Source: Corbicula japonica (lineage: Eukaryota > Mollusca > Bivalvia > Venerida > Cyrenidae). From it: a DNA stretch of 64,000 bases. Location of the stretch: assembly GCA_038501625.1 (NCBI GenBank), contig JAZAYU010000123.1:1488001-1552000 (forward strand). Reading direction: 5' to 3'. The position numbers and the translations under genes are program-made. The notes beneath the pieces were generated by a model, which did no database searches, had not been told where the DNA came from, and saw only the letters and a list, made by a program, of their open reading frames with translations. Shown piece after piece: positions 9,501-37,864 of the stretch (position 1 is its first letter; the number at the start of each line of letters is the position of its first letter).

Positions 9501-9506
9501 TTTTAA

Positions 9507-10215: not shown

Positions 10216-10219
10216 TTAA

Positions 10220-13551: not shown

Positions 13552-13629
13552 TATATAACATCACCTGCTTAATGAGATAAGTGAACTATACAACAGTTGA
13601 ACGGACAACAAACCTATGGTAAATAAATG

Positions 13630-14275
13630 ATGCCAAATTTTTTATTGTTTGATCGTTTTGAGAAGCGTAAGAATATTAAATTTTTGAAGATTTGGATTTA
13701 TATAATATTTCTTATCGATATATCGTTTACGTAATGATTTATAAAATGGGCATACAATCATAAAATGATACTCATTTTCAATTTATCATTACAATAGAAA
13801 CAGGTTCTTTGCTCTCTTGGTAAACCAATATGTCTGCCTTTTCTATAAGAAGTGAATGCGCCGATGTTCTAAAAGACGAAAAATAGAATCTAACTTTTTT
13901 AATATCAATTATTTCGAGATACCTTTCGAGCTAAATATGATTTAAGCTTTAAGTTTTGTTTACATTCTTCTGACCATTGTTGCATATATTGATCCTTTAA
14001 CCTTTGTAAATATTGGTGAAGAAACAATACCGAATTTTCAACTGTTTGTGCTTCCCAAATGTAACCAAAGGCTTTCTATATTAATTTCTTTTCCCGGATG
14101 TAGCCCAATTCGAATAGCCTAAACTATCGTTATGTAATAACATAGCATAGCACTTTTTCGCATGTCTATTAGAGGGCATCGACAAAATTTTAAGCCAATA
14201 CTTAATACATCGTTTCGAAGAAATAATATGTAAAGGGAAACGAGCACAATCTCCATGCACTGCGGCATTACAAAA
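13630..14275 (-). pseudogene. 3' half of a split LINE reverse-transcriptase ORF
   Basis: Minus-strand translation gives NAAVHGDCARFPLHII, then KRCIKYWLKILSMP, then IGLPREQRTCFYCND, the C-terminal region of a LINE polymerase with its final Cys motif. The preceding part of the same ORF (ending LLYGSEIWG) is on the same strand at 18245-18545. The two halves were separated by the insertion at 14276-18241. Several frameshifts and stops show it is dead. Confidence 0.75.
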
Positions 14276-17200: not shown

Positions 17201-18241
17201 AACGTTCTTCCGTTAACTGTTGATTTTATTGTTGAATTACATTATAAAAAATTGCAGCACCTACAAAATTGTACACCTCTTTAAATTGCACTTGTATATA
17301 AAAGGATAAAATCTGCGTCTTCCGTCGTTTATTTTTATTGGAGTGGAAATGTTATATTTTTGAAGAATGTGTGATTTAAGAGGTGACAATTTTATTTTCA
17401 AATTATTTTTAAATAAATTAGTTTGTAATGTAATAGGGAAATTATGCTAATAATTTACCAACATTTTAGGTGTTAAACATTTATATTTTAAAATATTTAT
17501 TTAGGACCTTGTTTAGTTACTAATATCCTTTTCTAGATAACATCAAATAGTTTGTTTACTAATTACCATCTCGTCAAAATATTTTTGCTACAGGTAATTT
17601 CATGTCTCATCTGTATGTATTAATTACATTTGACTCGTTCTTTTTATGATTAAGCAGGACGTTATATAACTGTTAATGTAGTTTTATAGATATTATTCAT
17701 GTCAAACTGTCATCACGAAACTACATTTACTTAGTAATACGTCTGCGGGAACAGTCTAGTGTAGGGTATAAAAAACAGATATGTATCTGTATAAAAGAAG
17801 AGAACGGCCGGATGGCCGGAATGGGCCACGGAATGCCTTTAGGAGGATGGTTTGTTAGTCTCGTGGCTAAATTACTAAACTTTGAAAAAGAGAAACTTAT
17901 GACACTTGGGAAATTATTTAGAAACGCTACATTTATAAGAAAGAACTGTTTATGTTTTAGAAGTAATAGATAAACTGTTTATAAAGCTCATACAGATATA
18001 AAGTAATTTTGGAACAAGTGTTTGTGTTATTAAACCCTGAGACCTTTGTAAGAATTAACGCACTACATTACAAGTTCATTGTGCACTCTGCAAACCGGTC
18101 ATATTGACGAAGTAGCCGAAGATAAATTTATTGGAGACAAACGAACTGACGTTTGCATGTATGTGAAAGTGTTTAATTTAGCCGGAATATGGACAGAAGA
18201 CGCAGAAGATAGCCTGGGAGTTAAAATATTTGCTTTTAAGC
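14276..18241 (-). mobile_element. RT element (Penelope-like?) inserted in a LINE, internally duplicated
   Basis: 17140-16824 (minus) encodes VPTMYWLPEMHKTPYTARFI, and 16610-16532 encodes GIPMGTNCAPLVADLFLYCY, a reverse-transcriptase motif. Near 16115-15895 and again at 15380-15130 is the conserved C-terminal block GDVPRATSYGVYISQ. Two copies of the 3' part thus lie head to tail (about 16115-15400 and 15380-14276). The element end TGTGGCGATTCCTGATATGC abuts the LINE sequence at 14275. All frames are broken. The YWLPK.HK.PYK.RFI signature suggests a Penelope-like lineage, but I am not certain. A family A repeat sits inside at 16125-16290. Confidence 0.7.
16125..16290 (-). repeat. Interspersed repeat family A, copy inside the RT element
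   Basis: It carries GCAGGCTTGGTTTGATTGAG, GGGCAGTAATG and CCGCCTAGCCCCGAGTTGAG in the same order as the 6790-6970 copy, followed by TTTACACCAATAAACC. It interrupts the RT element between its RT motif and C-terminal block. Confidence 0.8.
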
Positions 18242-18244
18242 ACA

Positions 18245-18545
18245 AGCTTGCAGCGGTGCTGACATATATCTTTTACATGCATATAAATGTACTTTTTCTA
18301 TAGAATATATATAATGTAATCAGTCCCCCAAATCTCAGAGCCATATAGTAAAATTGGAGCTATGTTTGCATTAAATAATTTAAAAAATACATTTCTTGGC
18401 AAAGGGTATAGATGGTGAAGAGAGGATAACAATGTTACCAAAAAGCGCTTTGCCTTTTCTGACATATTTTCAGCCTTTTTATACAAGGATAGTTGGCTAC
18501 TAAAAACATACCTACATAACAATACATTTAATTAAAACATAATTT
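18245..18545 (-). pseudogene. 5' half of the split LINE RT ORF
   Basis: Minus-strand translation includes SSQLSLYKKAENMSEKAKRF, then LYPLPRNVFFKLFNANIAPI and LLYGSEIWG, the thumb region of LINE polymerases. After small frameshifts it continues KVHLYACKRYMSAPLQAC. The next residues of the family pattern resume at 14275 with NAAVHGDC. TTGT (ACAA on the plus strand) is present at both junctions, a possible 4 bp duplication. Confidence 0.7.
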
Positions 18546-19140
18546 GCTAACCGTTTGCAATCAAGGCAGAATATTGATTTAGCTGATCCAACGTAGACAA
18601 TTTCTTTAAGTAATATTTAAAAGATATTATCTTAACTTTACTAGATAATTTTACCTTCGATTTAAAAATAAAGATAAGTGCTAACTTGATAAAGTTATAT
18701 TATTTTCTAAACTTTTGTATTTATAAACATTATAGTTTTGGAAGTTTGGTGTTTCACTTTGTGTTTAAAATACGTAAAAGTGTAGCAATACTGTAACTTT
18801 AAATTGATTACACACTTTCAAAAATTCTTTAAATAATATTAACGTAAATATGCATATGCTTATTTCTGGTCTCGCTATAAAATGTATGGTAATACACACT
18901 GGCAATTCTCAGTTGCTGTAATCGTTGGTTTTGAGAATGACTATTCATAAGCTTAGTCTAGCTTTTAAATCGTTTTACAGTGTACATATTTCATATTAAA
19001 CGAGTTTCACAGTTCGCTTGTTATGAATATCTTACTCAAAATTTGATAAGGATCACTTAAAAATTGGGTTTATTCCTTACATAAGAATGAAACAATAAAG
19101 TAGTTGCTGTGATTCTCAAAAATTTTTCATTTGACATCAG
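18546..19140. other. No gene seen
   Basis: AT-rich intron-like DNA before the candidate exon at 19141. Confidence 0.35.
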
Positions 19141-19201
19141 CTTTGTGCCAAAGAAGGAATGAGCCGACAAACTGTTGAAGCGGAACAGCGGTTGAAACTT
19201 T
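19141..19201 (+). CDS. Candidate short exon preceding the IgGFc exon
   Basis: The exon is bounded by TTTGACATCAG and by a GTAGGG donor. It reads LCAKEGMSRQTVEAEQRLKL plus one base, so it enters in phase 0 and leaves in phase 1. The IgGFc exon at 19382 needs exactly one base from upstream, so the frame closes to give ...RLKLLTLGTNF. The donor is mediocre and the peptide has no recognised domain. Support is phase consistency and proximity only. Confidence 0.4.
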
Positions 19202-19381
19202 GTAGGGGCAATAATTAGGGATAAAATAGAAAGCGATCCCTATCAAATTTTGAGTAGTATATTAAACGAATTGTTTTTAAATAATTACCATTTTCTGTAC
19301 AAGATATATTGACATATTGTAAATATTGACTTTGTTCATTCGGGCATGTTTATTTTAATTTTGAAAAACATCTTATTATAG

Positions 19382-20593
19382 TAACACTTGGGACAAACTT
19401 CATGTTTGGAGTACCTGCGAAACCTCAATCAAATGCTGATCAAATTTACGTTCATATAACATCAATGTCTAACAATCCAGCTCATGTAAGAATTACAGCG
19501 CCATTCATTAACTACGACAAACAGTTCACTGTATCCAACGCAACCATCATCGCTTTAAACGAACGTCTTATCCAAATGGAAGAAGGTCGTCAATTTAAAG
19601 GAATAGAAGAGTTTTCCGACTGGAATATATCAGTTTCCGTACTAGCTTACACCGGTATTCTCAACACGGAGGGCTTTCTCGTTCTCCCAACATCAGCGCT
19701 TTCCACACGATATATAGCAGCTTCGTATTATCCCTATCAGGCTAACAATAATACAATATTAGCTGTTGGTTTAGAGAGTAACACTGATGTATCTATCAAA
19801 TATAAAACCTCATGATCATCTTTTACGTTTCAAAATGTGACGCTGCAAAAGTTCCAGACTTTTCAAGTTTTGGCTAATTATGATTTGAGTGGAGCTGTGG
19901 TTATTAGCAACAAGCCTGTTGCCGTGTTGTCTGGGTCATATTGGTCAAGGATTCCTGTAGCAATAGGAGATGGAAACTGTATAGTAGAACAGATGATCCC
20001 TACACAATTCTGGGTAACTAAATTCGTAGTTCCACCTATATTTCCTCACAACTTTTACATCGTAAGGCTGTTTGCTGATGAGGACAACACGGAAGTTCAC
20101 TGTTATAACCACACACACCATTTTGCTGTGTACCTTGACCAGGGATCAATGCATGAGGTATTGTTTGGATCAGATCCGGCTGTTATCGTGGCCAACAAGC
20201 CAATCTGCGTTATTCAATACTTAGTAAACAACGAGAACATGTATGGCAATCCTTTTATGACCACTGTGCAAGGAATGTCTCAGTTCTTAAATTCTTACAA
20301 GTTTATCACAGAAACTGCCGACAGCAGAAACAGTACTATCGCTTTAACGGTCTTTAGAAACAACTTGGAGTCATTACAACTGAATGGGAGAAATATTTCC
20401 TTGTGGAATCCAAGAATAATACCGGTGGCAAAACCATTAGATAATTACATAACAGTATTTATTAATATTTCGTACAACGGTTTTTATGAACTGCATCACA
20501 CAAATGATGAAATATTTGGGGCTACAATCTATGGCTTACTAGACAGCCTTACATCGTATGGTTATCCTCTACAGCTAGCACTCTCTACCAGTG
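19382..20593 (+). CDS. IgGFc-binding protein N-terminal domain exon
   Basis: One long exon of 404 codon equivalents, entering and leaving in phase 1 (acceptor TTATTATAG at 19381, donor GTAAGT at 20594). The translation opens TLGTNFMFGVP, continues HVRITAPFINYDKQFTVSNA, then AVVISNKPVAVLSGSYW, and later VANKPICVIQYLVNNENMYG and TTVQGMSQFLNSYKFIT. These match the order of the IgGFc-binding N-terminal domain of secreted mucosal and adhesion-type proteins. The repeated 'NKP(V/I)(A/C)V' strands are typical. One in-frame TGA at 19813-19815 splits the exon into 137 and 254 codon pieces. It could be a nonsense allele, a CGA to TGA change in a dying gene, or an assembly error. The phase 1-1 boundaries match the linker exon and Ly6 blocks downstream. 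The domain is expected to be extracellular. Confidence 0.85.
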
Positions 20594-20819
20594 GTAAGTA
20601 ATACAAGTGCTAGAGACATATAATTTATGCAACAAGGGCTGATCACTCTCGTTGGCATACATTTTTAATGAAATCTGTTTAATTAGTACATGTAATTATA
20701 ACGTTTGTAAAAACAAAACTAGCATACTCCATTTTTCTTCTTTTCAAACGTTGGATAATATAATAAATAAAGAAGTTCGCAAATAAATTCTAACTTTGAA
20801 ACTTTTATTTACAGGCTTA

Positions 20820-23800
20820 GGTTCGAATGCAACGAACAACAAAAGCAACACATGCACATAATTAATATCAAACACAAAATAATGCTAATGGCGGCATGAG
20901 TTAGGAAACGACAATATAATAAAGGTTCTTAGAAAACATCATTCATGCGATTATTCGTAAAATAATTACCAGACACAAAACGTAAATGCTGGAAATAAAA
21001 TTACAGGTAAACACAACATGTACATGATAGAAATGAAAAAACAAGTATACATGTATATTTGAATAAGTATTCACAATCTATGAGTATATACACAAATATC
21101 ATTATGATATCATTTTTCTAAAACAAAGCAAAATGATATTTTATGCCTTTACAATATCTTTTATTTTTTGTAAAAAGGTACAAAGATTTTTTAAATCAAT
21201 TAATTTGTCAGTGCTGAATAAATTTTTAGGTTTTTAAATATTAGGTCTGGTAAAGTAAAAAAGGTTTAACATATCTTTTCCTATCTTCGTCAAAAAAGGG
21301 GCATTGCAAAATATAGTGGAATTCATCTCCTAAGGATGCGCAGTAATTGCACATATTTTCATTTGATGGAATACCTCTCCATCTGCTTTTTTCTATCAGT
21401 AGTCTGTGGTTTCTGGTTACAAAGGAGAATATAATTTTACATTGATATTTAGGCAGTAAAGTTAATAACAGTTGGCTATTTTTTCTTACAAGTGAAAAGA
21501 GCGCTTTATTCGCTGGTTCCGCTAAGTATTGTTTTGTTTTAATGAATGACCCCGTTCTTGTAAAAAAGATACCTAAGTATTTATACTCATCTAGTATTTC
21601 GATGTTTTCATTTCCTAAATTGAATATTGTATGGTGTCTACGCCTGCCTTTACGAAATATAACAATTTTAGTCTTATCTACATTGACAGTTAATCTCCAC
21701 TTATCGCAATATTCCTTAAAGTATCCTTAAGTGCGTTTTGCATGTCATGTTCATTTTCACTAAATATAACAGTGTCATCAGCGTATAATAATAATAATAA
21801 TAATTTTAAATACATATGTGCGTCTTCTATAGCCAAATGCGTATCGGTATCTTTGACATTTTTATCTTGTAAGAAGTTTTCAAGATCATTTAAGTAAATA
21901 CTGAATAAAAAAGTGAAAGATTTTCACCTGGACGCACCCCATTTAGACATTCGAAAAAGGCTGAGCTTCCCTCGTTTGTTTGTACTTTTGACTAAATATT
22001 CTGATACATATTGTAAATAAACCTTAAGCATTTTCCATTAATATTTTCTTTTTGTACTTTTCTCCAGAGCCCTACCCTCCAAATTGAATCGAAACATTGT
22101 TTAAAGTCGACAAAAAAGCAGAGCAAATTTTTCTTGTTAGAATTTACTATATCTATGAGACTTCTTAATATGAATAAGTTATCTACGGTTGAATGGTGTT
22201 TCCGAAACCCCGATTGATTGGCATTAATCACATTTGTTTTCTCCGCCCATTTATTTAACCTGGTATTTAAGATACTCGTTAACAATTTACCGAGGCAACT
22301 TAGTAAAGATATAGGTCGATAATTTTCGGGTAAATTTGGGTTTCCTTTATTTTTATAAATGGGTTTAATTATACCAATGGTCAAGCTTTGTGGGACGATT
22401 CCCTCATTTAGAACTAAATTAAACAATTTTTTGAAAACAGGCAACATTGTATTAATCGTCGACTTAATTTGTTCGTTAACTATTTGATCGTATCCCGTTG
22501 GCTTGTTATTTTTCCACTGCATTACAGCTTTAAGAATTTCATCACCATCCATCGGTCGATTTATTTCTTCATTAACATCGCCAGATGCATTCCAGTATTG
22601 CTTAGGATCAGAGTTTTTTAGTTTTCTAAGTTTTTCAGTTAGGTCGTTATTGTACCTGTTTTGCAAAATTCGTAATGTTTGTTTATAAACTTTACTCACT
22701 TCTTTTAATTTTAATTTAAAATAATCATTTTTGTATCTATTGTATGCTCTTCGCGTTTTATGGTATATGTTTCGGATGTTTTGACACACAAAATTTTTCG
22801 TTTTTGTTTTAATAATTCCATTTTGTCGAACGGTACCGAATGTTTTCTTTGAGTTTTGTTCAAATAAGGTTCCTATATTATTAACTATTTCGTCAACAGT
22901 TGTTTGGTTACATATATTTTGTTCGATAATTTCATCTTATCTGGTTTCTAATTCTGCTAGGCGGGTAATATCAAAATTTTTAATAAAATCTTCTTTTTTG
23001 TCAGGATCCCATAATTTTGTTTTACAGTTTACCTTTACATCGTTGGCCAGATAATGATGACTAGTTTTACTTTTTAAAACCAGTGATATCGGGCAATGAA
23101 CATCAGAAAAGAGATCGCAAAATTCTATGATTTGGTTTCCGTAAAAATTTACAGCATGGTATATTGTTTTTCTAATATATGGAACATTACAAATGCTAAA
23201 CTGTTGTAAACTATTCATGTGCTCTTCTTCCACAGACTGCAGATCAAACATATCAGACAGAAAACTATCGACCTCACAGATGTCTGACATGTTACCACAT
23301 CTGGAGTTATAATCACCAATTAAGAGTTTATCGCTGCTTGAATTGCAGAATCTAAAAACTTCATTTTGAATTTCAGTAAATGGGTCCTCATGTGCATATT
23401 TTGAACCAATAGGCGGTATATACACAATACCACAATTTAAGTCATTTTGGGTGCTTCTATTTAAACCATAAAGATTTTTGGAAATAGTAAACATCAGTAT
23501 TAATTTACAGTTAGAGCTTGTATCAACTGTTATAAAGGGTGCGATATCTTTTTTAACTATCTATCTATCTATATATACTGCATGACGCTATTGTTTAGCA
23601 TTTTATGCAGGTGCGTGTCTGTGCAAGAAATATTAAAAGAAGAAATGTACAGGAGAAAAAAAGTAATACATAATGTATTTGTGAGAGTTCTGAGTTAAAG
23701 CTGATAGTGTTAGTTAAAAGACTAGATTTACAGTTAAAAGAGTAAAAAACAGCATAGTCACTTAGAAATTATGGCACAGTTTAGTTACCCCCTGCCTAAA

Positions 23801-24100
23801 CTGGTCCAGGGTGGGTGCCTGTGCAATATTTGCTGGTAAAGAATTCCACAGTACAATAGTAGCAGGGTAGAATGAAAATTTATACAAGAACTACAAGAGC
23901 TATACCACCTGAACGTTTATTTGATAATTTTTCTCTGTTCAAAGTATGTACATTATACCCATCAACATTAATTACAACTGAGTCGTCTATTTTTGTTTCC
24001 TGAAGCCCAATTATATCATATTTGTTTATTAAAGTTAAGAACTCGGGCACCCTTAACTTAGGTTACAGACCGCAAACGTTTATGCACAATATTTTTATAT
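20820..24100 (-). pseudogene. LINE ORF2: endonuclease and reverse transcriptase
   Basis: Reading the minus strand from 24100: KLRVPEFLTLINKYDIIGLQ and ETKIDD open an APE-type endonuclease, interrupted at about 23890-23540 by another LINE, then resuming with GIVYIPPIGSKYAHEDPFTE and LLIGDYNSRCG. The reverse transcriptase follows: WKNNKPTGYDQI, ENYRPISLLSCLGKLL, NQSGFRKHHSTVDNLF, FVDFKQCFDSIWR, then YADDTVIFSENEHD at about 21790-21750, and KYLGIFFTRTGSF. A C-terminal MCNYCASLGDEFHYILQCPF block ends the protein near 21300. Frameshifts occur near 21905 and 22930. An AAT microsatellite has expanded directly before YADD. Together with 24280-26160 this is a nearly full-length but dead L1-like element lying antisense in an intron of the IgGFc/Ly6 gene. 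Confidence 0.85.
23540..23890 (-). mobile_element. 5'-truncated LINE nested in the endonuclease
   Basis: Minus-strand translation of 23885-23775 gives FYPATIVLWNSLPANIAQAP, then TLDQFRQGVTKLCHNF and a stop, the C-terminal end of a different non-LTR polymerase. A 3' UTR follows and ends in a GATA-type tetranucleotide tail near 23570. The endonuclease of the host LINE breaks off at GGIALVVLV on one side and resumes with FITVDTSSNCK on the other. A second LINE therefore inserted here on the same strand. Confidence 0.75.
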
Positions 24101-24287
24101 CACTTGTTGAGTTGCAAGTTAGTTCACTGTAACACAACGGCTGATTTTGTATATAACTGTCCCCATTGTTCGGTAAATAATAGCCGTTTTCCGTTAATCC
24201 TTATTGACTGTCATCAATGTCAATTATCTGTGGTTCGTATGATCTTTGGTCGCCGCCAACTGTTGTTCTCGTCTGCCCATTATCTGA

Positions 24288-24370
24288 GTGTGTGTGTGTG
24301 TGCGCGTGTGTGTGTGTGTGCGTGCGTGCGTGCGAGCGTGCGTGCGTGTGTGTGTGTGTGTGTGTGTGTC
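24288..24370. repeat. GT/GC dinucleotide microsatellite
   Basis: About 80 bp of alternating GT with GCGT interruptions. On the minus strand it is read as alternating Thr and His codons at the end of the LINE ORF1. Confidence 0.95.
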
Positions 24371-25229
24371 ATGTCTGGTTCATTTAATATTACCGTTGAG
24401 TCACTATTTGTATCAGTGTTAATTGTTTCGTCTCTTTGTTTTTTTAAAGATACACTATCTTCAAGAGGAGATCGTGCTTTGGTTTTTCCTTGAATTGGAT
24501 CTCGTTTAACAGGTGTCACTTCAGTGCTCCAGCTTAGGGGAGCGAATCTATTGTCCGTGTTTAGGCTGAAGTCGCGTGACTCGTTCTGAGGCTTATGAGA
24601 TCGATTTTTGCGAGTAAACGTTCTTGACCATCGTGTATTATTGTCTGTGTGTCGTGTTTCATCTTGTCGCAGATCGTGTTTGTTAGTCGGCTTTGCATTG
24701 TAATCACGAATATTCGTGTTATGTGTTGGATGGTTTCTTGTTTCAGGCCACTCTACACCTGGTATCGGGTCGCCATCCCTGTATTCCTTGTTGTTAATAT
24801 AAAGTTTGTCTCGTATGAGTCTCACTTGGTTTTTTTTGTTTTTGCGTGCCTGTTTCGCTACTGTGTATAATTGTTTTCGTCTGGTCTCCATTTCTTGTGG
24901 GTATTGTTCTTTAACGTAGTAATCAGTGTCTTTAAGTTTTATTGGTGCTTGTTGTCTTACGTATTCTCTTTAGTATGTAAATTTTGCCACAATCGGCCGC
25001 GGATACTAAGCGTCACTTTTATATTTTCCCAAGCGATCTACCCTTTCAAAATAGAAAGTGCCATGTACATGATGTAGTTTCATCTCCCGTTCTAAAAAAT
25101 TCTGAACTACTTCTTCACAATTCTCTCTCTCTTCTTCAAAATTTACTGCCTCTGGGATTCCAGAAAAAATTAAATTGTCTCTCATGCTTCGCCACTGTAT
25201 GTCGAAAATTTTTTCGTCAGTACTTTTAA

Positions 25230-25911
25230 GGCGTCGCAAAAATTGCATATGGCGAAAACTAGCTAAAATTTCAAAAATGAATTTTAGGGAAAATAGTTAT
25301 TGCTGCCTAGATTATAGTAAAGGAATGTATTTAGCTAAGGATGTAGTTAATGATTGCAAGCTCAATTTTGTCTAATTCATGTTCTAATTATCAAGCACAT
25401 ACTAAAACAAAAGAAAAACCGTTTGCATGAGAACTCTGTAATTCATGGACAATATACCAAACCAACTCATACCAGAAATGAGTATATGCTTGTCTACAAT
25501 GTTTAGTGCCAATTCATTGAAATAATGTTGTGGTTTTAAAGAAATTCAAGGAAAACTTACTTCCCGGTTCAAACCGAAAGAAGAAATCTATATAAATCTA
25601 CTTTCGGTTTGAACCAGGAAGTAAGTTTACCTTGAATAAACATTGTAGACCAGCATATACTTATTTCTGATATGAATCGCTTTGGTATATTGTACATGAA
25701 TTTCAGAGTTCTTACGCAAATGGTTTTTCTTTTGTTTTAGTATGTGCTTGGTAATAAGAAAATGAATAAGACTTAATTGAGCTTGCAAACATTAACTACA
25801 TCCATAGCTAAAAGCATTCTTTACTAAAATCTAGGTTGCAATAAGTATTTCCCCCAAAATTCATTTTTGAAATTTTAGCCAGTTTTCGCCATTTGCAATG
25901 TTTGCGACCTC
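25230..25911. mobile_element. 682 bp foldback element inserted at TTAA in LINE ORF1
   Basis: Nearly the whole element is one inverted repeat with a loop of about 20 bp at 25582-25600. Left end GGCGTCGCAAAAATTGCA; right end, reverse-complemented, GAGGTCGCAAACATTGCA. The left arm has about 40 extra bases near 25505-25545. TTAA flanks both ends (25226-25229 and 25912-25915). Removing the element and one TTAA rejoins the LINE ORF1 in frame as EKLKSTDEK. There is no coding potential. A piggyBac-type mobiliser is inferred from the TTAA duplication. Confidence 0.85.
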
Positions 25912-26337
25912 TTAAGTTTCTCCGTAAAAATCTGTTGATGGTTTTCTAGTGTTTGTACTTGTCTAGTAATGTTATTTATTGTCCTATCTGCATCTGTAGT
26001 ATTAGCAGTGATTTCGTCACACATATCGCTGTATTGTTTTATTGTTTCGTCGTAGTCCTTGACCTTTGTTTTTATGTCGCACATCTCAGAGTTTAGTTTC
26101 TCAATGCGTTTATTTGTTTTTTCAATTTCGTGCTGTAACATTGTAATTTGTTGAAACTCTTTCTCAATCTGAAAACATGTTTAGCGAATTGTTTGTCAAA
26201 CAAACAAACAAATGCATGCATTTTGAAATGAAATTCTTACAGACGTCATATTGCTTCCAGTAAGATCATGGCAACGCTGGAGCAAAAGTTACAATTATAA
26301 CAACAATACAATTATTACTATTTTTATAATAATATTT

Positions 26338-26347
26338 AATAATAATA

Positions 26348-26392
<45 letters not shown>
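26338..26392. repeat. ATT trinucleotide microsatellite
   Basis: An uninterrupted run of about 16 ATT units next to the 5' end of the minus-strand LINE. Confidence 0.95.
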
Positions 26393-26404
26393 TTATGCAT
26401 CCTA

Positions 26405-26530
26405 ACTACATAATACGTAGTATCAATATCATGTAACGGCTCACAGAACGTTATCAAAATGTCATATTTAGAGATGAGCCTATAATAAGACATTTTGATA
26501 ACGTTCTGTGAGGCGTTACATAATATTGTA
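26405..26530. repeat. Short hairpin repeat
   Basis: CAGAACGTTATCAAAATGTC at 26443 is mirrored by GACATTTTGATAACGTTCTG at 26490, with GTAAC/GTTAC at the outer ends. This gives arms of about 35 bp around a 25 bp loop. It lies just upstream of the linker exon at 26559. Confidence 0.75.
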
Positions 26531-26558
26531 TTGAAGCTTTTTGCTGATGTTATCACAG

Positions 26559-26648
26559 AATGTGGAGAAATAACGACCATAAAGATTGAATCAACTACAA
26601 ATGAACAATTTGTTACAACCACTAGTGCTGATCACATAAAGTCGCAAG
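26559..26648 (+). CDS. Ser/Thr-rich linker exon between IgGFc and Ly6 domains
   Basis: A 90 bp exon bounded by TGATGTTATCACAG and a GTTTGT donor, symmetric in phase 1-1. It reads CGEITTIKIESTTNEQFVTT and then TSADHIKSQ. The preceding IgGFc exon ends in phase 1 and the next exon begins in phase 1, so the frame is kept. The many Thr/Ser residues suit an extracellular, possibly O-glycosylated stalk. The domain is not recognised; phase fit and position are the main support. Confidence 0.6.
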
Positions 26649-26860
26649 GTTTGTTTCTTTTACCCATGCATTTAGACAAACAGGTATTACTATAGTGTTG
26701 ATGGTCAGAAACTATTTTTTTCGAAAAAGTCGGACAGGTAAAACGATTTTTTTCGAACGGCACATTTTCGTGTTACATAGAAGAACCTAAAAATTACAAA
26801 TGAGGCGTCCTTATTTACCTGCGTTACTACACCACGCCAGAGCTTCAATGGATTGCCTTT

Positions 26861-26945
26861 TTCTGAAATTCAAAACAAAATGGCGAAAGACGATAATATG
26901 TGGGTTGCCGGGGAAGGATTTTAAAGCACGTGACTTAATATACAT
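26861..26945. repeat. Diverged fragment of the 44-45 kb palindrome family
   Basis: It contains GAAATTCAAAACAAAATGGC, then GACGATAAT and AAAGCACGTG, matching the order at 45375-45440 and, inverted, at 44205-44285. It is the only copy of this family that I recognise elsewhere in the window. Confidence 0.6.
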
Positions 26946-27274
26946 TTTAATATACAAGCATAGCGAAATAAGCTATGAAAATGGCTAATGTTTCATTAAT
27001 ATTTTTATTATAAAAATATTATGATTGTAATATAGTTTCTGTATCTTTCAGCAGATTGAAGTTAAGATGCGATATTGATGTCAATAGACGTTGTGTACTG
27101 ATTAATACAACAGGTCTGTGAATGTTCAAGTAAAAACTGTAAAAACTTTTATCACCTGCTTTGAAATAGATCAATGAAGAAAATGTATACTTATGAATTA
27201 CAACGGGCACGATGTACGGGTTCGCGTATAGCAGTGTCTTCGAGAGAGAAATTGTCTTGTTTATTTGACTTCAG

Positions 27275-30200
27275 GAAATGGGACATGGTGCATGGACTGT
27301 GATAATATGCCGCTTCTTGAACTTTGTGACCAAGTTGTAAAATGTCACAATGATGAGGTAAGTGTTGGTATACGACAAGTTACGTTTTCGATTTTAACCG
27401 AATCAGTATTTGTTGCAAAAGGTTCGAAATATAGAATTCCATCAGACATCGACTTTAATACCTGTCGCGCGGAAATTGCAGAGTCTTTAAACTCTTCTTG
27501 CAAAAATTGTGTAAACGAGAACATGCTGAGCCTAATGCTCTTTCAAACTGGAAAAAACAAAAATTCAAAATAATTGAGACTCGTATATCCTTCTAAAAAA
27601 GAAACATAGCTTTATGACCACCTCGACCTCGTTTTAACTTTCGTCATTTGAAAAAGGGTATTCAAGATTTTCACAACAGATTTGTTTTAACACCTGCTGA
27701 TAGGGCTGCAAATAATGTAATTATAGTGTGATGTACACACTATATATTAATCCTCAAACTGAAGAGCTTAATAGCACTAATGCTTATTCACTGACCTTTT
27801 CATCTGAAAGTGATATTGTTAATACACACACTTTAAAATTACAAAATTCAGAATCAGTGTTGAGCCGAAAAAAAGACAAAGTACCTACTATGTATTGGTT
27901 GCCTAAAAGGCACAACACACCGTACAAAGCAAGATTTATTGCAAACTCTATTTCTTGTACTACAACAAAAATATCCGTGCTCTTAACATCTTGTCTTACA
28001 GCTATAAAAAACATGTTGCTGATCTGTTTTAATACTGTTATGAAAGAGACTTTTATTTTATCTCTTTCTACCGAACATCAAGAAGATATTATTACAGCTT
28101 TTAATAACACCTCAAGATACCTTGATGATTTATTAATATAGATAATAACCATTTTCCATCACTGATTAACAAGATTTATCGTAAAGAACTACAGATTAAT
28201 AAAGCGAACACTTCAAAAAAGCAAACAAACTTTCTTGATCTAAATTTGTCTACTAAATTTATGATAAAAGAGATGATTTTAATTTTAATATAGTAAATTT
28301 TCCGTTTTTAGACGGCGATGTTCCTCGTGCAACATCTTACGGGGTTTATATTTCACAGCTTGTTCGCTTTTCAAGAGCTTGCAACGATGTAAATGATTTC
28401 AATGAACGTAATCTGTGCATTACAGAAAAACTTTTAAAACAGGGTTGTCGGTATCACAAATCAAGGAAAACATTTTGCAAGTTTTATCGCCGATACCCAG
28501 ATCTAATACATAAATACAGATGCAGTTTAAAATCACTATTGCAACAAAGTATTTCAGAGCCGGTGTTTTATGGAGATTTAATTTACAAACTTAAGAAGAT
28601 AAAGGGCAATGTTAATTTCTCTCGGTTATTTGTAAAAACCATCTGTAAATTAAAAACGAAAGGTTACCAACATGATATTTTACAGAGCTCTGTACTACAT
28701 AGGCCTGGTGATTAACCTATCTACAGTTGATCATTATGCTTACCTCTTTGGTTGCACGACAGTGGCAGGGGTTTAAGAGTTTATTAAGGTTTATGGGGAA
28801 ATTTTTTCTTAAAAGAACCTAAAAGCTCGATTCGTTACTTTTATTCCTGTCATCGTGTTCTTGCTGATTTTACCCCAGGAGCTCTGGTCTCTGTAGGATC
28901 GTTGAGTACCTACCCTTTGGCTTTGCAATGCTATTAGCTTATTATGTTTTTTATGTTTGTGTGCTTTTACATGCAACATTGTTGAGCCGATGGGTGGGTT
29001 GGAGTTATTTTACCAAGACAACATGTGCTTGTTTTGTGATACGAGAACCTGTTTGGGCAAGGGTGAGGTTGGTGAACCCTAGAACCTGGTTTAAACCCCC
29101 AGTGGCAAATTGTTTTGCCACTGACCGTTCCAAGGCGGTATCCCCAAAGGTTCTCTTCTTCGTTAATTGTTTGTGGCGTTCTATTTGAATTGACTAACTT
29201 ATATAAAACATGCTCTCTCTCTTCCTCTCTCCTTTTTCGCTGCGTGAGGAGGCTGTGTTTTTTTTTAGTGTGGCGATTCCTGATATGCATATATTACTTT
29301 TTTGCAAACCTAGGTTCCGAGTGTTTCATAATGAGCTGTTTCCATTTAAATAGGCAATCTTTATTTATTTTTCGTTAGATGCTTATTGGATGTCAACGAA
29401 AACTGCAAGCTATTTGATGCTATAACATCGTTAATAACATCACTTGAATTTGAAGCGCTTCTACGAGAGTTACTAGAATTTAGTAGATGACTTTTTGGTG
29501 ACAGAAAATTGAATATCATGACTTATCTTATTGAAAAGTGACAGTGATGCTAATCCCAAACACTTATGCGTAAAAGAAATAAACTGCAACAAAATGTTAT
29601 TGTAATGAATCTACCAATATAGATAACCGATTATTGAAATTGAAAGTGTTTGTTAACATTGAATTATTATTAAATTTATAAAATTACATCCCTTTTACCT
29701 AAATTAATAATTAACAGTGATGTGTATTAAAACGAGCCATGAGCTTCGTTGCAGATTTTATTATTTATAACTATTACATTATTTTTGTAAACCATAACTA
29801 ATTACTATATTAAGAATGTAACGGATTAAAAAAAATCATAAATATTGAGACATGTACCTTTAATTAAAAATGTTGGCGGAGGGATTTTTTTTTAGTAAAA
29901 CAAACCATTTACTAACACAAGCCATATTTTCATTATTTTCACCAGTATTGCAATTCTATTTTTTACTTTGGATATGTTGATAATATTATATGTGCTCTAG
30001 TTATTTACCTTATAAAGAATTTCCTTAAAACGTGCATGAGAGTTTGGCGTTTTACATGTTGCCATCTATAAAAGTTTACACGCATTTAAAATTACTTTTA
30101 ATTACTTTGACATTGACCTTTGAAATATAAACCTCTAAACTAATTGTAGATATTTACATGTACCACTTGTAACCAATTGTTACCAACTATCCTACCAAAT

Positions 30201-31981
30201 TTAGAAAAGCGTTCTCTATTTGTTATTTGAGACAAAGTTGTGCATTAAAGGTTACAGAGACCTTTGATCTGTTAACCTCAAAATCAACAGGAGTCATCTA
30301 CCTGTCTTGCAAATCGTTAACACTAGTCCTCAGAATTCTTTATCTAACTATCGGATATTGTGCTCACACTAGAAGTCACCATGGCCTTGGCCTTTGACAG
30401 TTTGACCACAAAATCCATAAGAGTTATCTACTTTCCTTGAAAATAATCTTCCATGTTTATAGACACATAGCCTTACCCTTCTCTAAATATTGACATGGTA
30501 CTGTTTGGTCTACCAAAAGAAAATCTGCTATTTAAAGATAATCTTCAACGTCAATTGAGGATCATCTGCATATAGACACATATTAACACAGACATGTTTT
30601 AATGAAATATAACTTGCCAGTTACAAGATAAGTCTGGCTTTATGGAATATAAATGAGTTGCAAAAGACGATAATTCGTCTCTACATTGTTGGATTTGACC
30701 ATGACCATTCCTCTATCCTAATATACAATCATGAAAATAAAAACAAAATCAGCATCCCGTGCCAAGCAGATATGACACTGGACGGACGGATGAATAGACG
30801 GACGGATGAACGAGGCAAAAACAGTATTCCTCCGCTTTCGGTAGGATAAAAATGATCTAAGGAGAGAACAAGTAGAAAGCGTGTTTTCCCTTCTATTTCT
30901 CGGGAAGGTTCATCGCGTTTAGTTACAGAATATTTTATGGCTTGCAATCTCTTTCGACAGAGTGTCACTTGTCGTGTTTCAGGTATGCTTTGTTCTGTCC
31001 TACACAAAGGGCCAGCATGTTACTTACTTCCGGTCGGGATGCATGGCGAAATCTGTAAGATTTATGCTAACTATTCCTATGATAGTTTTCTTATTAGCTG
31101 AGTTATTTTATCGTAGCATATGATACCTTTTTCCGTCACGGTATGCTTTAAATCGTTTTGCTTTTAATACTCATTCGGTAATAGCATACAAGGTATATAC
31201 TTAACTTAATTTACCTATTCTTACTCGTTTACAATCTGTTTGTTTGGATCCTTTATCAGTAACAAACATTATGAATAATATATGATAAACATTACCTTCT
31301 GCTTTTTAAATTTTGTTCTCTGTGATACGCAGGATTTATATTTTCTGATTCCCTATCAGAAGTCTATATTGTTCTGTTCTTGTCATTCTATTCACATTCA
31401 TTTATCAAAGGACCATAGACCGTTGATCATGGAGTGTTGTTAATCTAAAAATACCACCTCGAAAATTCCACCGTCATATGCACACATTCGTTTGGAATTG
31501 ATTATATTTATATTGTGTACTTGTGTAAATAAAAAGTTGCGCTCGATCAATTCGAGGTATTGATATGCATTTGAATTTCTATCCATATACAGGCTTTATT
31601 CAAACCGAGCCTGCGATTTTTCATATTTGCCGTGTTTGTTGGCTTTTTCATCTGTTGTCATATATAATGTACGTATTGATTACTGAAGGCCGACCCTAAC
31701 AAAACATTTCTCGACCAATACTAAGTTTTAAACGTCTTAAAACTCATAAAAAGAATATGGCATTGTCACTTTTGTAAAACGTTTGGCTGTTAAAACTTAT
31801 TTAAAGTTGCTTACCTGTCAAGAGACTGACCAGCTATCGATAAGATATTATATGACTGCTTATATTTAAAACAGTCATTGCCTACATGTATTTTAGAAAT
31901 GCGACATTATTGATGAGCGGGTCAGCTGTCAAACATGTTGTGAACATGACTTCTGCAATACTGCCGGATGTGGAGATTTAG
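27275..31981 (+). CDS. Ly6/uPAR domain 1 (three exons)
   Basis: Exons 27275-27357, 30983-31054 and 31897-31981, with phases 1-0, 0-0 and 0-1; all have AG acceptors and GT donors (GTAAGT, GTAAGA, GTCTGA). Spliced, they encode 80 codons with 12 cysteines: TWCMDCDNMPLLELCDQVVK, then CHNDE, VCFVLSYTKGQHVTYFRSGC, and SCQTCCEHDFCNTAGC. The closing CC....FCN and the C..C...C..V..C...E.C spacing are the signature of the Ly6/uPAR three-finger fold, an extracellular disulphide-rich module. The last intron phase matches Ly6 block 2. The first intron hosts an RT element at 27400-29305. I found no stop or frameshift in these exons. Confidence 0.85.
27400..29305 (+). pseudogene. RT element remnant (Penelope-like?) in an intron
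   Basis: SVFVAKGSKYRIPSDIDFNT (27408-27470) is the N-terminal conserved block. VPTMYWLPKRHNTPYKARFI (27880-27940) and NTSRYLDDLLI (28105-28140) are RT motifs, the latter bearing the catalytic Asp pair. FPFLDGDVPRATSYGVYISQ (28300-28360) and FCKFYRRYPDLIHKYRCSLK follow, and then a 3' region ending TTCCTGATATGCATATATTA at 29305. Much of the central palm domain is missing and several stops are present. It is the same family as 14276-18241 and 32450-33240. Confidence 0.75.
29306..30982. other. Intronic DNA, no gene seen
   Basis: No supported exon or RNA gene before the Ly6 exon at 30983. A degenerate GGACGGACGGATGAA run lies at 30781-30820. Several 'TTGACCTTTGA' words occur at 30110-30400 without forming an array. 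Confidence 0.4.
31575..31660 (+). repeat. Repeat family A fragment
   Basis: TTCAAACCGAGCCTGCGATT followed by TTTCATATTTGCCGTG matches the reverse complement of the 6790-6970 copy's start. Only the end of the element is present. A further trace lies at 32110-32165. Confidence 0.6.
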
Positions 31982-32449
31982 GTCTGATAAGTAATACGTG
32001 TTTAGTATATTTATGTAATACTATGTTTACAGTTTAAACCATTTAACACATCAAAATAATATTTTTTATTTAGGGGCTATTAATATACATTTTAATTACT
32101 ACCCATTGCCATGCTCTGCAATATTTTGATATTTGTCATTTACGGTGGAATTCAAAGTTCCTGTTCCATCTATTGAAAAGTTTTTATTTAAAAAAAACCG
32201 GTTTGATTACATGTAAGAAGTGTGCCTCTTAAAATACGCTCCAAAACGGGCAAACGTATATGATTTATCTACATGCATTTCCCCGTATATGGTAAATGAC
32301 TAAATTATAAATTTTAAAGCCCTTTGCTTCTTTCAAATTCTTTTAAAAGGATTAGATAATTATAAAATAATTAAATACCTTAACTGATACCAGTTACGCA
32401 CACTTAAAATTTTAAAATTACCATTTTTACGCTGCTCAAAATCATTGAA

Positions 32450-33240
32450 GGGGTACAAATATGTTATAAATTGCCAACCATACTACATATTCTTTGCATA
32501 ACAGAAAAACTTTTAAAACAGGGTTATCGTTATCATAAATTAAATACAATCTTTTGCAAGTTCTATCGCCGATACCCAGATTTAAATAAAAAATTCTAGT
32601 ACAGTTTAAAATCACTATTGCAACAAAGTATTTCACAGCCAGTTTTGTATGGAGATTTAATTTGTTATGTTCAACTTATGGAAATAAAATGCAATGTTAA
32701 TTTCTCCACTTTATTTCGTAAAACAACATCCGCTTATTCAAAAAGAAAGGTTACCAAAATGATATTCTACAGCGCTCTGCATTCCTGATGATTTACCCAT
32801 CTACAGTTGATCATTATGCTTACCTTTGTGGTTGCACGACGGTGGCAGGGGTTGAGTTTATGAAGGTTTATGGGAAAATCTCGTTAAAAGAACATAGAAG
32901 CTCGATGTGTTCCTTTTCTCCCTGTCATCGTGTTGTTGCTGAATTGACTCTAGGTGTTCTGGTCTTGGTCTCGGTGGGATCTTTGAGTACCCGCCCTTTT
33001 GACTTGCAATGCTTTAAGCTTCTTATGTTTTTTGTTTGTGTGCTGTTGCATGCAACATTGTTGAGGTGATGAGGGTGTTAGAGTTTTTTCTCGTAGACAA
33101 CTTGTACTTGTTTGTTCATATGAGAACCGGTCTGGGCAAGTTTGATGTTGGTGCACCCTAGAACCTGGTTTAAACTCTAGTGGCAAATTGTGTTGCCACG
33201 GACCGTTCTAAGGCGGTAACCCCAAGGGTTCTCTGTGGTT
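32450..33240 (+). mobile_element. 5'-truncated RT element copy
   Basis: Translation of 32495-32690 gives LCITEKLLKQGYRYHKL, FCKFYRRYPDLNKK and SLKSLLQQSISQPVLYGDLI, the C-terminal part of the RT element at 27400-29305. The shared 3' region follows (GTGGTTGCACGACGGTGGCA; GCATGCAACATTGTTGAGG; CACCCTAGAACCTGGTTTAA). A run of 14 C lies just beyond at 33262. Confidence 0.75.
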
Positions 33241-33374
33241 ATTGTTCACAAGGGAAATTGTTCCCCCCCCCCCCCAACCAAGAAAAATAAAAGATTGCGA
33301 CTATGCATACGTACAGTTCATTCACGATAGCACATTTGACAAAATGAATGTTTTAATGCAATTTAACTGTATCT

Positions 33375-34220
33375 GCTCTTATGGCAACAACCCAGCGGCG
33401 TCCTTTAGCAACTACTGATGTTGCACGGCTGGTGCAGGTGATCGAGAATGGATTAACGCAACGTTAGGTGGCCACCGTTTTAGACGTTTCTTGCAGCGCT
33501 ATGCCAGGTTCTGGAGTCGTTATCAAGAGACCAGGGAATTCACAACAAGTCCTGGGCAAGGTCGTCACAGCATTACAACACCTCGTCAGGATCGATACTG
33601 AGTACTTTGACCCTCGAAAATTGTCAGTGTGTACTGCTACTGGCATTGAAATTTACTTCCGATAAACTACAGGGGTGTGTGTGTCCACACAAACTGTCAT
33701 TCCAGGAAGTATTCTGGCGGTCCTGAGATATCGGAACCAATAGTTAGGCAATATCCTGGTGCAACAGATGAAACTTTTGTTTAGTGACCGATTATGATCG
33801 CGCACACAGTGCGAGAACCGCCCGAAACTTTGTTGATGAAGATATCGAAGTCATAGACTGGCCAGCGAGGTCTTCCGATCTCAACCCTATAGAGCATGTC
33901 TTGGACACGCTTTCTTGTATACTTTCTTTGCGTCTGAACCCCGTAAGAAACGTCCGTGAGCTTTTTCATGCTCTTGTAGCAGCTTCCGATCTTAACCCTT
34001 TAGAGCATGTCTTGGACTCGCTTGCTCGTAGACTTTCTTTGCGTCCGAACCCTGTGAGGAACGCCCGTAAGCTTTTTCATGCTCTTGTAGTAGAATGGGA
34101 TGCCATACCACAGGATGTGATCAGAGGTGTCATCAGGCGCATGTCCAAAAGATGCAGAGTTCCTAAACGCTCGAGAGGGAAATACCCCTTACTGACACTG
34201 AGTATGAAACTTTTGTTATG
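33375..34220 (+). pseudogene. Tc1-like transposase with an internal duplication
   Basis: 33375-33490 encodes MATTQRRPLATTDVARLVQV and IENGLTQR, the Tc1 N-terminal helix-turn-helix, ended by a TAG. 33784-34221 encodes AHSARTARNFVDEDIEVIDW, PARSSDLNPIEHVLDTL, then a second DLNPLEHVLDSLARRLSLRP and FHALVVEWDAIPQDVIRGVI. The D(L)NPIEH block carries the third catalytic position. It is present twice because about 120 bp (roughly 33868-33985) are tandemly duplicated in frame. The middle of the protein is missing. The transposase is dead. Confidence 0.8.
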
Positions 34221-34269
34221 ACTGAATATGCTTTTACAGACATTTATTGTTCTCCTGTAAGACTACCAT

Positions 34270-34880
34270 TACAGTGTCTTAAGTTAAATTCAATTTGATA
34301 GTGTTCATATCATGGACACCGTCTCTGTTCAGGAACTTGCCTATTGGCGATGAAAATGCCGATTTGTTCTTTGTTAAAAGAACGATTTTGTTATTTCTGT
34401 TAAAGATATTCAAAAATCTTCTGAACAGGTACGGTATTTTAAAGATTATATGGACGCTCCTTTAATTATTTTGAGCAGTGTATTAGGTACATTGTAGGTC
34501 AATAATAGGCCTTAGGAGCATGCTACTTCAGTGACATCCTTTACAAATACATACCTATATAAATAAGCCCTACTTGTTACAGGAAATTATTACATTGAAT
34601 GAATGCTCATTGACATACTGTCCGGTGATTGACTGCTAGATAGTCTCGGAAAGCCTACTTATCTACGTTGTCTGTTAGTGTAACTAACCATTACTTATAT
34701 AGCCCCGAACATCCTTCAGGTATTTATATCAGATTCTGATATTGTGCAATCGGATTGAATCCGGGTATCGTAGGGTTTGTCTGTTGTTTTATTTTCGAAA
34801 CAATCACCACCTTACAGCGATCATAATTTCTTTTAAAATTACCTTAGCTTTAAAAGCATATACCCGGTGATAATACAATG
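34270..34880. other. Intronic DNA, no gene seen
   Basis: No exon, array or element end was recognised between the Tc1 copy and the tandem repeat. Confidence 0.35.
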
Positions 34881-34904
34881 AATTTTGCTAGAAGCCCTTT
34901 TTTG

Positions 34905-35445
34905 TCGCCCTTTCGAAGAAAAGGCGAGACATAGGGATCGCTGTCCGTCCGTCGATCCGTCGGTCCGTCACGAAAACTTAACGTTGGCTATTTCTTAATA
35001 TTTCTTTATCAAACTTTCAAATAATATTGCTTATGACAACACGCTCGAGATGATGCCAAATTCTTAAGATAAAGGTCATATTTGATGGAGTTATTCCCCT
35101 TTTTGTACTTGGATTTTGTCGCGAAAACTTAACGTTGTCTATAACTTAGCCATTTCTTAATATTTCTCTATCATACTTTCAAATTATATTGCTTATGACA
35201 ACACGCTCGAGTTGATGACAAAGTCTTAAGGTCAAGGTCACATTTGATGTAGTTATGCCCCTTTTTGTACTTGGATTTAAACAATGTTTGCTATAACTTT
35301 GCCATTTCTTAATATTTCTTCATCACACTTTCAAATTATATTGTTTATGACAACACAGTCGTGATGATACTAAATTATGTAGGTCAAGGTCACATTTGAT
35401 GGAGTTATGCCCCTTTTTGTACTTGCACTTTTATTCCGACAAAGC
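34905..35445 (+). repeat. Three ~160 bp tandem units with a hairpin head
   Basis: Each unit has the blocks AACTTAACGTTG or AACAATGTTTGC, GCCATTTCTTAATATTTCT, CTTTCAAATTATATTG, TATGACAACAC, AAGGTCAAGGTCACATTTGA and ATGCCCCTTTTTGTACTTG. Units start near 34970, 35115 and 35275. The head holds CCTTTCGAAGAAAAGGCG, a short hairpin, then a GTCCGTCCGTCGATCC run. This is an interspersed element with an internal tandem core. Confidence 0.85.
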
Positions 35446-35517
35446 ACCAGAGGTCGACACAAGTGTTCAACTGAACACCCATCTAGTAAAGATATTTTAT
35501 TGCAAATATGGTTATAG

Positions 35518-37123
35518 GCCTACCGGAATTGCAACACCGGGGACCAATGTGTTTTGATTGTTTGCACCAAGAGGGTTCCGACACGTGTAGGACTGTGCAA
35601 ATGTGTGGATCCGATCAGGTACATGTGTATCTTGGTTAACATTGACATTTTAACTTTTTGTGTCGAATCCAATCTTTTACTACTTTGTAAAGGATGTTTT
35701 TGATGAATATATCTTGCTATGTGAAGCATTAATATGTTGGAAAGTTTTCATTGTTAGCTTTAAAATAATGTTGTTTCTGTAACATTGACTTTGTATGATG
35801 GTCACATGTCTTTAAGCCTGCGAATTGCAAGTTGTAACGAAATAGTAAATAAAATTAACATATTAAGTCAAACAGCTTTAAAAGTTAACACATTTTCCAT
35901 TGACTGATTTTTGTTATTAAATTAACAACAAATTAACAAAAGAGAAAGAGTGAGGTAAGTTTTCGTTAACTTTGCAAATTCTTTGAAAACTATAATTGTA
36001 TTTACGTGTACTTTGCCTAAAGGTTTGCACAATTGACCAATACAAATGGGGTGATGGATATCGTTACGAAACGGGTTGCTCAGATACAACGGTAGGAAAA
36101 AAAACTTTGTTACCTTTAATGAATAAGGAATAAATTAAGATTTTGTTGGAACATATTAAATACAGCCACATATAGAAAATAGATAACACTTATGGGTTAG
36201 AACATTAAGTCTAAGTGTGAATTGTAATGCCTCTAATGGACCTAGCAATCGTACCATAGAGTAATTACAACGAGTTCTCTTAAGAAAACAGCGACAACAT
36301 GAAAACAGGAACTACGTGACCATTTAAATCTTAATAATCAGAAGTTTACTAATACAACAAGTGTTACTAAGCTTAATAACCAGTCTTTCAGTCGGGCAGT
36401 CAATCCGCAAGTTTTCTTAGCTCTTCTCTATATTCGAACTATAATATGTATGTGTAATACGTCTTATGTTAATATCTTTATAAGTTCAATGTGTAAAGAA
36501 AAATAAACGTTATCATGAAATTCAATGTTGGATCTTCACAAAGCAAAATAAAACGCTATAAATGCACAATGTACACGCGAAAAATTTCTCGCCCATTGAC
36601 CCGTCCATTTTGGCGCTAAGAACATTTTTACAGCGTTAATGTATGTGAATATTGACAAAGTACGATAATAAATTGTTAAGTCAAGTCGTAAACACATGGA
36701 ACAACGCAAAATATAAACATGATTTATAAATTTTTAAAAGTAACTTTGATGGGGTAAATTTTAGGTTCGGCTAAACCCGGGTCTAGGCGGCGTAGGCAGC
36801 TGTAGGCATTTTTATTACTACATATGAACGGGCTCAGTCATACCGAGCCTGCTGTATTTTCATATTTTCCGTGTTTAGTGGCTTAAAAAGTTCACTTTTA
36901 ATCTATTTTATGTCATATTTCACAAGCGATAAACGGTACAAAGAACATGTGATGTAGAAGCCTTAATATCCATGATAACTTATTTTATCGCAGGCATGCA
37001 AATCTAGACGGGACGTTCAAGACCTTCAACTTCAGTCGAGATCTGTTCTAACATGCACGCAGTGTTGCCATACAGACTTTTGCAACACTAACTGCTCAAA
37101 TACACGTCATCCAGAAATAATAG
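35518..37123 (+). CDS. Ly6/uPAR domain 2 (three exons)
   Basis: Exons 35518-35618, 36023-36091 and 36994-37123, with phases 1-0, 0-0 and 0-1, the same architecture as domain 1. Donors are GTACAT, GTAGGA and GTATCA. Spliced, they encode 100 codons with 12 cysteines: MCFDCLHQEGSDTCRTVQMC, then VCTIDQYKWGDGYRYETGC, and VLTCTQCCHTDFCNTNC. A short GLPELQHRGP linker leads in. The exon pattern and CC....FCN ending match domain 1. The exon leaves in phase 1, so further coding sequence must follow, but I could not identify the next exon. No stop interrupts this block. Confidence 0.8.
36745..36900 (+). repeat. Repeat family A copy
   Basis: It contains CTAAACCCGGGTCTAGGCGG and TCATACCGAGCCTGCTG, reverse complements of the conserved blocks at 6790-6970. 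It lies inside the intron between the last two Ly6 exons. Confidence 0.75.
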
Positions 37124-37864
37124 GTATCATATATTTTACTACTGAGATGACTTTGACATATTGTTGCTTATAAGTTTGAACATACTTATATGTTGTTGTC
37201 ACTTACCTATCATTTTCGGCAATGTATGGCTAGCGAGAAAGTAAGGAATCATTATACAAAAATACTGTGCTGACACAAATACCCTTTTAGTAATAAACGT
37301 ATTAAAACTTTCGCTAGCAGGAACAAAAGACAAACTATTTAAAGGGAAAGGTATAGCCTTTTAAATTTATACTGTATAATTAAACATGCTTTTCATGTGC
37401 GACTGTACTTATAACAATATTTCTAGCTGTCAAACCAAGGGATGCTATTATGAGGCCCTTCTGATTGTTCAAGCGCATACGTGTATAATCGTAGTTAAAT
37501 TATATTTTAACCATCAATGTTTACAAATTATCAACTAACCATAAGGGTCGCCATGGCTGGTTATTTTAAATTAACGAGTTACTGATTTCCTGTTGATTAT
37601 ACTATTACAGATTTAGCAGTCGGGCCTCAGTTTTAACACTTCAGTTAATACAATAACAGCTGTTTTACAGTTACTCGTCTTGCTTTACTCATGCAAAATC
37701 TCTATCAAAACATTTACCGTCAACTAAAATTACCGATGTCTTTAACAAAATATATTGTCAAAACTGTGGAGTCGTCAGTCATGGCATTCATTGCCAGGCG
37801 AAATTGATAAAAACCTCGTGATCTTATTAATTAAGAAAATGCAATCTGAATTTAAATTAGCGAT
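37124..37864. other. No supported exon
   Basis: The next exon of the IgGFc/Ly6 gene should lie here or beyond. A stretch after CTGTTTTACAG at 37670 stays open for about 45 codons in the required phase, but it has no recognisable domain or membrane segment. Confidence 0.3.

What the first reader, a model, noticed from the sequence alone, without database searches (positions are those of the whole stretch)
19141..37123. Chimeric gene joining an IgGFc-binding domain to tandem Ly6/uPAR domains
Plus-strand exons spread over 18 kb can be joined without breaking frame: IgGFc exon (phase 1-1), linker (1-1), Ly6 block 1 (1-0, 0-0, 0-1) and Ly6 block 2 (same). All internal junctions agree, and both Ly6 blocks have identical exon architecture and 12 cysteines. 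IgGFc-N and Ly6 are both extracellular adhesion or recognition folds; I do not recall this combination being described. The symmetric phases would let whole domains duplicate, so Ly6 number might vary between individuals. A role in mucosal or haemocyte recognition would be speculation.
Basis: partly seen in the sequence, partly recalled or inferred. Interest (0 to 1): 0.85.

Follow-up and report, generated by a model that had tools for sequence, protein, structure and literature searches.

The report
Stop-interrupted IgGFc–Ly6 fusion gene
This stretch of a bivalve-like genome carries a real gene that joins an IgGFc-binding domain to two Ly6 domains, an architecture also seen in predicted proteins of two venerid clams, but the copy read here has a stop codon in the middle of its first domain.

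Summary
The exon chain is real. Eight plus-strand exons (19382-37123) have AG/GT borders and matching phases; both Ly6 blocks have 12 cysteines. The spliced protein, with X at one stop, aligns end to end with a predicted hard-clam protein (Mercenaria LOC123560552, 53% identity, 100% of the query). Six database records from Mercenaria and Ruditapes hold IgGFc plus Ly6; 24 of 24 Ly6 cysteines are kept in 7 of 7 relatives compared. This copy is most likely a null allele or young pseudogene, or the base is a sequence error. I saw no paper on the combination (open-licence library, capped lists). A review doubts that Ly6 is a bona fide mobile module (passages); this gene, and a Ruditapes protein with the same Ly6 pair on another N-terminus, suggest that here it is. 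Function, inferred: secreted recognition or mucus protein.

The parts
19382..20593 (+). IgGFc_binding exon, phase 1-1, interrupted by a stop
   Evidence: 59% identity by tblastn to P0001 residues 32-430
19813..19815 (+). in-frame TGA inside the IgGFc exon
26559..26648 (+). linker exon, phase 1-1, Thr-rich, second residue Cys as in the relatives' linkers
   Evidence: not matched by tblastn
27275..27357 (+). Ly6 block 1, exon 1 (phase 1-0)
30983..31054 (+). Ly6 block 1, exon 2 (phase 0-0)
31897..31981 (+). Ly6 block 1, exon 3 (phase 0-1), holds CCxxxxCN
35518..35618 (+). Ly6 block 2, exon 1 (phase 1-0)
36023..36091 (+). Ly6 block 2, exon 2 (phase 0-0)
36994..37123 (+). Ly6 block 2, exon 3 (phase 0-1), holds CCxxxxCN; if unspliced it runs to a stop at 37171-37173

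Best explanation
This is a bivalve (probably venerid-related) gene whose intact relatives encode a secreted protein: signal peptide, IgGFc_binding domain, Thr/Ser-rich linker, two tandem 12-cysteine Ly6/uPAR (LU) domains, and no visible membrane anchor. It arose by joining phase-1-bounded modules. The copy in this window is interrupted by a stop in the IgGFc domain and shows no convincing signal exon in the window, so as read it cannot make the fusion protein: a null allele or young pseudogene, or a base-level error in the assembly. Intact relatives most likely work as soluble two-ended binders in mucus or haemolymph: the IgGFc domain holds to mucus or microbial glycoprotein, and the two LU domains bind a second protein ligand. 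Shown: exons, phases, stop, relatives, cysteines. Inferred: the source group, secretion, loss of function, and the whole mode of action.
For: Spliced query (X at the stop) to P0001: 53% over 100% of the query, E 6.1e-224. Fusion records: P0001, P0002, P0006, P0035 (Mercenaria), P0032, P0033 (Ruditapes). 24 of 24 Ly6 cysteines kept in 7 of 7 relatives compared. P0001, P0002, P0032 and P0033 begin with a hydrophobic signal-like stretch; P0006, P0032, P0033, P0034 and P0035 end in I-I-G or L-I-G without a hydrophobic tail (by my reading; P0001 ends differently and P0002 is marked partial). One stop and no frameshift in 613 codons. IgGFc-binding proteins of bivalves are reported among genes changed by LPS and PGN in Ruditapes (passages) and in oyster mucus and larval settlement (passages).
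Against: No transcript was available. The fusion proteins are predicted records from two related genomes. One predicted isoform (P0036) ends before the Ly6 exons. The values printed for the Ruditapes IgGFc-binding gene after LPS and PGN are negative (-9.4 and -8.8), which does not look like an induced defence gene, and the passages do not concern Ly6-bearing proteins. The Ly6 part is modelled at low confidence. Youth of the stop rests on a crude simulation (mean 3.9 extra stops by 10% amino-acid change, but the lowest of 200 runs was -1). The assembly's own genome could not be searched.
Confidence: 0.72

Rival explanations
1. The stop is a sequencing or assembly error, or a rare allele, and the locus is a working gene whose signal exon lies upstream of the window. 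(Overlaps with the best explanation, which leaves this open.)
For: Only one defect in 613 codons; all borders AG/GT; all 24 Ly6 cysteines intact.
Against: No convincing signal exon in window 200-19381: the widest scan gave 6 rows at 4 donor sites on the plus strand and 4 rows at 4 donor sites on the reverse strand. First introns can be longer than that.
Confidence: 0.4
2. Two neighbouring genes: an IgGFc gene ending near 20860 and a separate tandem-Ly6 gene, not one fusion.
For: An acceptor-like site before 20815 opens a short frame that ends in TAA at 20859-20861; an isoform of a Mercenaria relative ends without Ly6; a stretch with reverse-transcriptase frames lies between the parts.
Against: Six predicted records carry both parts in this order with a Cys at the same place in the linker; none of nine relatives matched the short terminal frame by tblastn.
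Confidence: 0.1
3. An old, decaying pseudogene with no role.
For: Stop in a conserved domain; no convincing signal exon; introns hold transposable-element fragments.
Against: No frameshift, no second stop, all splice borders and Ly6 cysteines kept.
Confidence: 0.18
4. The exon chain is a chance assembly of open frames.
For: The linker alone would not be distinctive (78 open phase 1-1 candidates).
Against: End-to-end homology, E 6.1e-224.
Confidence: 0.01

Closest known systems
Predicted proteins Mercenaria mercenaria LOC123560552, LOC128559542, LOC128548862 and Ruditapes philippinarum LOC132739566
   Same: IgGFc_binding + linker + two 12-Cys Ly6 domains, same order
   Different: Open reading frames; the window copy has a stop and is 53% (LOC123560552) and 36% (LOC128559542) identical to the two listed with the window query
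Vertebrate FCGBP (IgGFc-binding protein of mucus)
   [quoted passage not shown] PF17517 here
   Different: FCGBP continues with vWD-C8-TIL repeats; the relatives here have two LU domains and no such repeats by Pfam
Multi-LU proteins such as uPAR, C4.4A, Haldisin
   Different: Multi-LU proteins contain only this domain, typically two exons per domain and 10 consensus cysteines (PMC6600238, passages); here three exons, 12 cysteines, and an IgGFc partner
Ruditapes philippinarum LOC132759583 (P0034)
   Same: Same two-LU module with Ser/Thr-rich linker
   Different: N-terminal part is not IgGFc by Pfam; precomputed label PF25898 did not appear in the Pfam copy scanned

Membership tests
IgGFc_binding (PF17517) | Score above Pfam gathering cut-off | tested here: met
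   27.9 and 139.9 bits on the two halves either side of the stop, cut-off 25.6
IgGFc_binding (PF17517) | Open frame through the domain | tested here: not met
   TGA at 19813-19815
FCGBP proper | vWD-C8-TIL repeats after the IgGFc domain | tested here: not met
   P0001, P0002 and P0006 show IgGFc_binding, UPAR_LY6 and Toxin_TOLIP (below cut-off in P0006), plus a below-cut-off Castor1_N in P0002, and nothing else up to E 1
Ly6/uPAR (LU) domain | Score above Pfam gathering cut-off | tested here: met
   PF00021 32.1 bits, two stretches, cut-off 24.8, on the joined Ly6 part; the single exon 36979-37170 alone gave no UPAR_LY6 match
Ly6/uPAR (LU) domain | 10 consensus cysteines, Asn after the tenth | tested here: met
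   Both blocks hold C-x2-C ... CCxxxxCN with 12 cysteines each; rule from PMC6600238. Which two are extra is my reading: one between the 6th and 7th consensus Cys and one after the CN
Ly6/uPAR (LU) domain | Exon set flanked by phase-1 introns | tested here: met
   Blocks enter in phase 1 and leave in phase 1, if 37123 is a donor
Ly6/uPAR (LU) domain | Two exons per mature domain (typical) | tested here: not met
   Three exons per block
Ly6/uPAR (LU) domain | Three-finger fold | tested here: inconclusive
GPI-anchored LU protein | C-terminal hydrophobic anchor signal | tested here: inconclusive
   Five relatives end in IIG or LIG without a hydrophobic tail, by reading; the window's last exon is unsettled
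Secreted protein | Signal peptide exon | tested here: inconclusive
   Signal-like start in P0001, P0002, P0032, P0033 by reading; none convincing in window 200-19381

The most novel reading that the evidence does not exclude
In venerid-type clams, phase-1-bounded cassettes (signal + IgGFc + linker + first Ly6) are duplicated in tandem and alternatively spliced onto a shared second Ly6 block, giving a variable-constant set of secreted recognition proteins; the window holds one cassette of that system in which a null allele is present. The same Ly6 pair is also shuffled onto an unrelated N-terminal domain.
Probability: 0.18. Interest if true: 0.7.

Novelty: new variant of a known kind. Interest (0 to 1): 0.42.

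Why it matters
[quoted passage not shown] A phase-1-bounded LU pair joined to IgGFc in one set of clam proteins and to another domain in P0034 speaks against that. If the Ruditapes isoform models are right, it also offers a testable route by which an animal without antibodies varies one end of a secreted binding protein while holding the other constant.

Full report
What was checked. I located each exon and its borders and joined them. Eight exons result: IgGFc 19382-20593, linker 26559-26648, Ly6 block 1 at 27275-27357, 30983-31054, 31897-31981, and Ly6 block 2 at 35518-35618, 36023-36091, 36994-37123. All eight acceptors are AG and all eight donors GT. The phases are 1-1, 1-1, then 1-0, 0-0, 0-1 twice. 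Each Ly6 block has 12 cysteines.

The IgGFc exon is not open: an in-frame TGA lies at 19813-19815, residue 144 of the 613 that I can join. The two halves score separately with Pfam PF17517, at 27.9 and 139.9 bits against a cut-off of 25.6, so the stop sits inside a recognisable domain. I also found no convincing signal-peptide exon upstream. The widest scan, over 200-19381, gave 6 rows at 4 donor sites on the plus strand and 4 rows at 4 donor sites on the reverse strand as control; a signal split over two exons would be missed. As read, translation entering this exon would end after 143 residues and not reach the Ly6 exons.

Is the join real? The spliced protein with X at the stop was searched against 5.8 billion proteins: 31 of 7498 candidates passed E 0.001, and 3 of the 31 carry both IgGFc and Ly6 by precomputed Pfam. 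The best, Mercenaria mercenaria LOC123560552, aligns over 100% of the query at 53% identity. A search with words from the Ly6 part of that protein gave 6 passing proteins of 16 candidates: 5 with IgGFc and Ly6, 1 with Ly6 and another N-terminus. A profile search gave 59 passing proteins of 7995 scored (a capped set), 5 of them with both domains by Pfam. Distinct fusion records over the three searches are six: four from Mercenaria (P0001, P0002, P0006, P0035) and two isoforms of one Ruditapes gene (P0032, P0033). P0043 (Ruditapes) has IgGFc and, by tblastn only, a first Ly6 exon. Both species are Veneridae. The searches find only proteins sharing exact five-residue words, so absence elsewhere means little. 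The window's species is not given; I cannot exclude that it is itself one of these clams and the gene a paralogue missing from the database.

Exon by exon. In tblastn of nine relatives against the window (E up to 1) the IgGFc exon is matched by 8 (not P0034, which has none). All six Ly6 exons are matched by 6 of 9 (P0001, P0002, P0032, P0033, P0034, P0035); P0006 matches five, P0043 one and P0036 none. Off-target matches in the window have E 0.085 or more, so there is no sign of a second copy. The linker is not matched. Its support is a Cys as second linker residue at the same place in the relatives and its Thr content. Of 78 open phase 1-1 frames of 60-150 bases between 20611 and 27100, 11 have Cys second: 8 lie in a simple repeat, 1 in the retrotransposon stretch, and the other 2 share the acceptor at 26559. 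In pairwise alignments 24 of 24 Ly6 cysteines are kept in 7 of 7 relatives compared (P0001, P0002, P0006, P0032, P0033, P0034, P0035); P0036 and P0043, which lack the full Ly6 part, were not in that count.

How broken is it? There is one stop and no frameshift in 613 codons. A crude simulation of unconstrained substitution gave a mean of 3.9 additional stops by the time 10% of amino acids had changed (200 runs, lowest -1, that is, a run that lost the stop). It ignores indels and base bias, so it only suggests that the stop is recent if real. I cannot tell null allele, young pseudogene and sequence error apart without reads.

Modules. LU genes typically use two exons for the mature domain, with phase-1 flanks and 10 cysteines; the review calls LU a 'proto-module' rather than a bona fide mobile one. 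Here each LU has three exons, 12 cysteines and phase-1 flanks, and the pair is joined to IgGFc in six records and to a different N-terminus in Ruditapes P0034. The two Ruditapes isoforms P0032 and P0033 share 348 of the first 440 alignment columns, differ also in the first Ly6 block (one change in the part matching the window's third Ly6 exon) and are identical over the second block, as expected if two duplicated cassettes splice to one shared end. This rests on two predicted models whose gene I have not seen. A Mercenaria isoform, P0036, stops after the linker, so Ly6-less forms may also exist.

Verdict. The architecture is real and already sits in databases as predicted, uncharacterised proteins; I saw no paper on it in an open-licence library (listings, two of them capped). 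The window copy is interrupted. New variant of a known kind, moderate interest.

Noticed in passing
window 40195-49200, minus strand: Exons of a beta-lactamase-family (PF00144) serine-hydrolase-like gene: 48832-49200 and 43033-43362 above cut-off, 41042-41383 below it, and 40195-40935 with a below-cut-off DUF3471 match.
   Followed up: partly
window 53327-55254, minus strand: Two long open frames (285 and 314 residues) with no Pfam match up to E 0.01, the second rich in cysteine; the look of an adhesion-GPCR ectodomain is recalled, not tested.
   Followed up: no
window 21241-25296, minus strand: Broken frames of a reverse-transcriptase element (PF00078 at 21992-22936; the outer limits are my grouping of frames) in the intron between the IgGFc and linker exons.
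   Followed up: partly
window 28406-29156 and 32485-33234: Two copies of a dispersed element, 77-91% alike piece by piece, in two different introns of the Ly6 part.
   Followed up: no
window 33772-34221 and 34969-35430: DDE_3 transposase fragment with an internal 111-base tandem duplication, and a 152-base tandem array of 2.8 copies.
   Followed up: no
window 3479-4144 and 51955-52872, plus strand: Integrase-core (PF24764) fragment and a second reverse-transcriptase (PF00078) fragment.
   Followed up: no
Ruditapes philippinarum P0034 (LOC132759583): The same two-LU module on a different N-terminal part (precomputed label PF25898), suggesting that the pair is shuffled.
   Followed up: partly
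Ruditapes philippinarum P0032 / P0033 (LOC132739566 X1, X2): Isoforms with different IgGFc-to-first-Ly6 parts and an identical second Ly6 block.
   Followed up: partly
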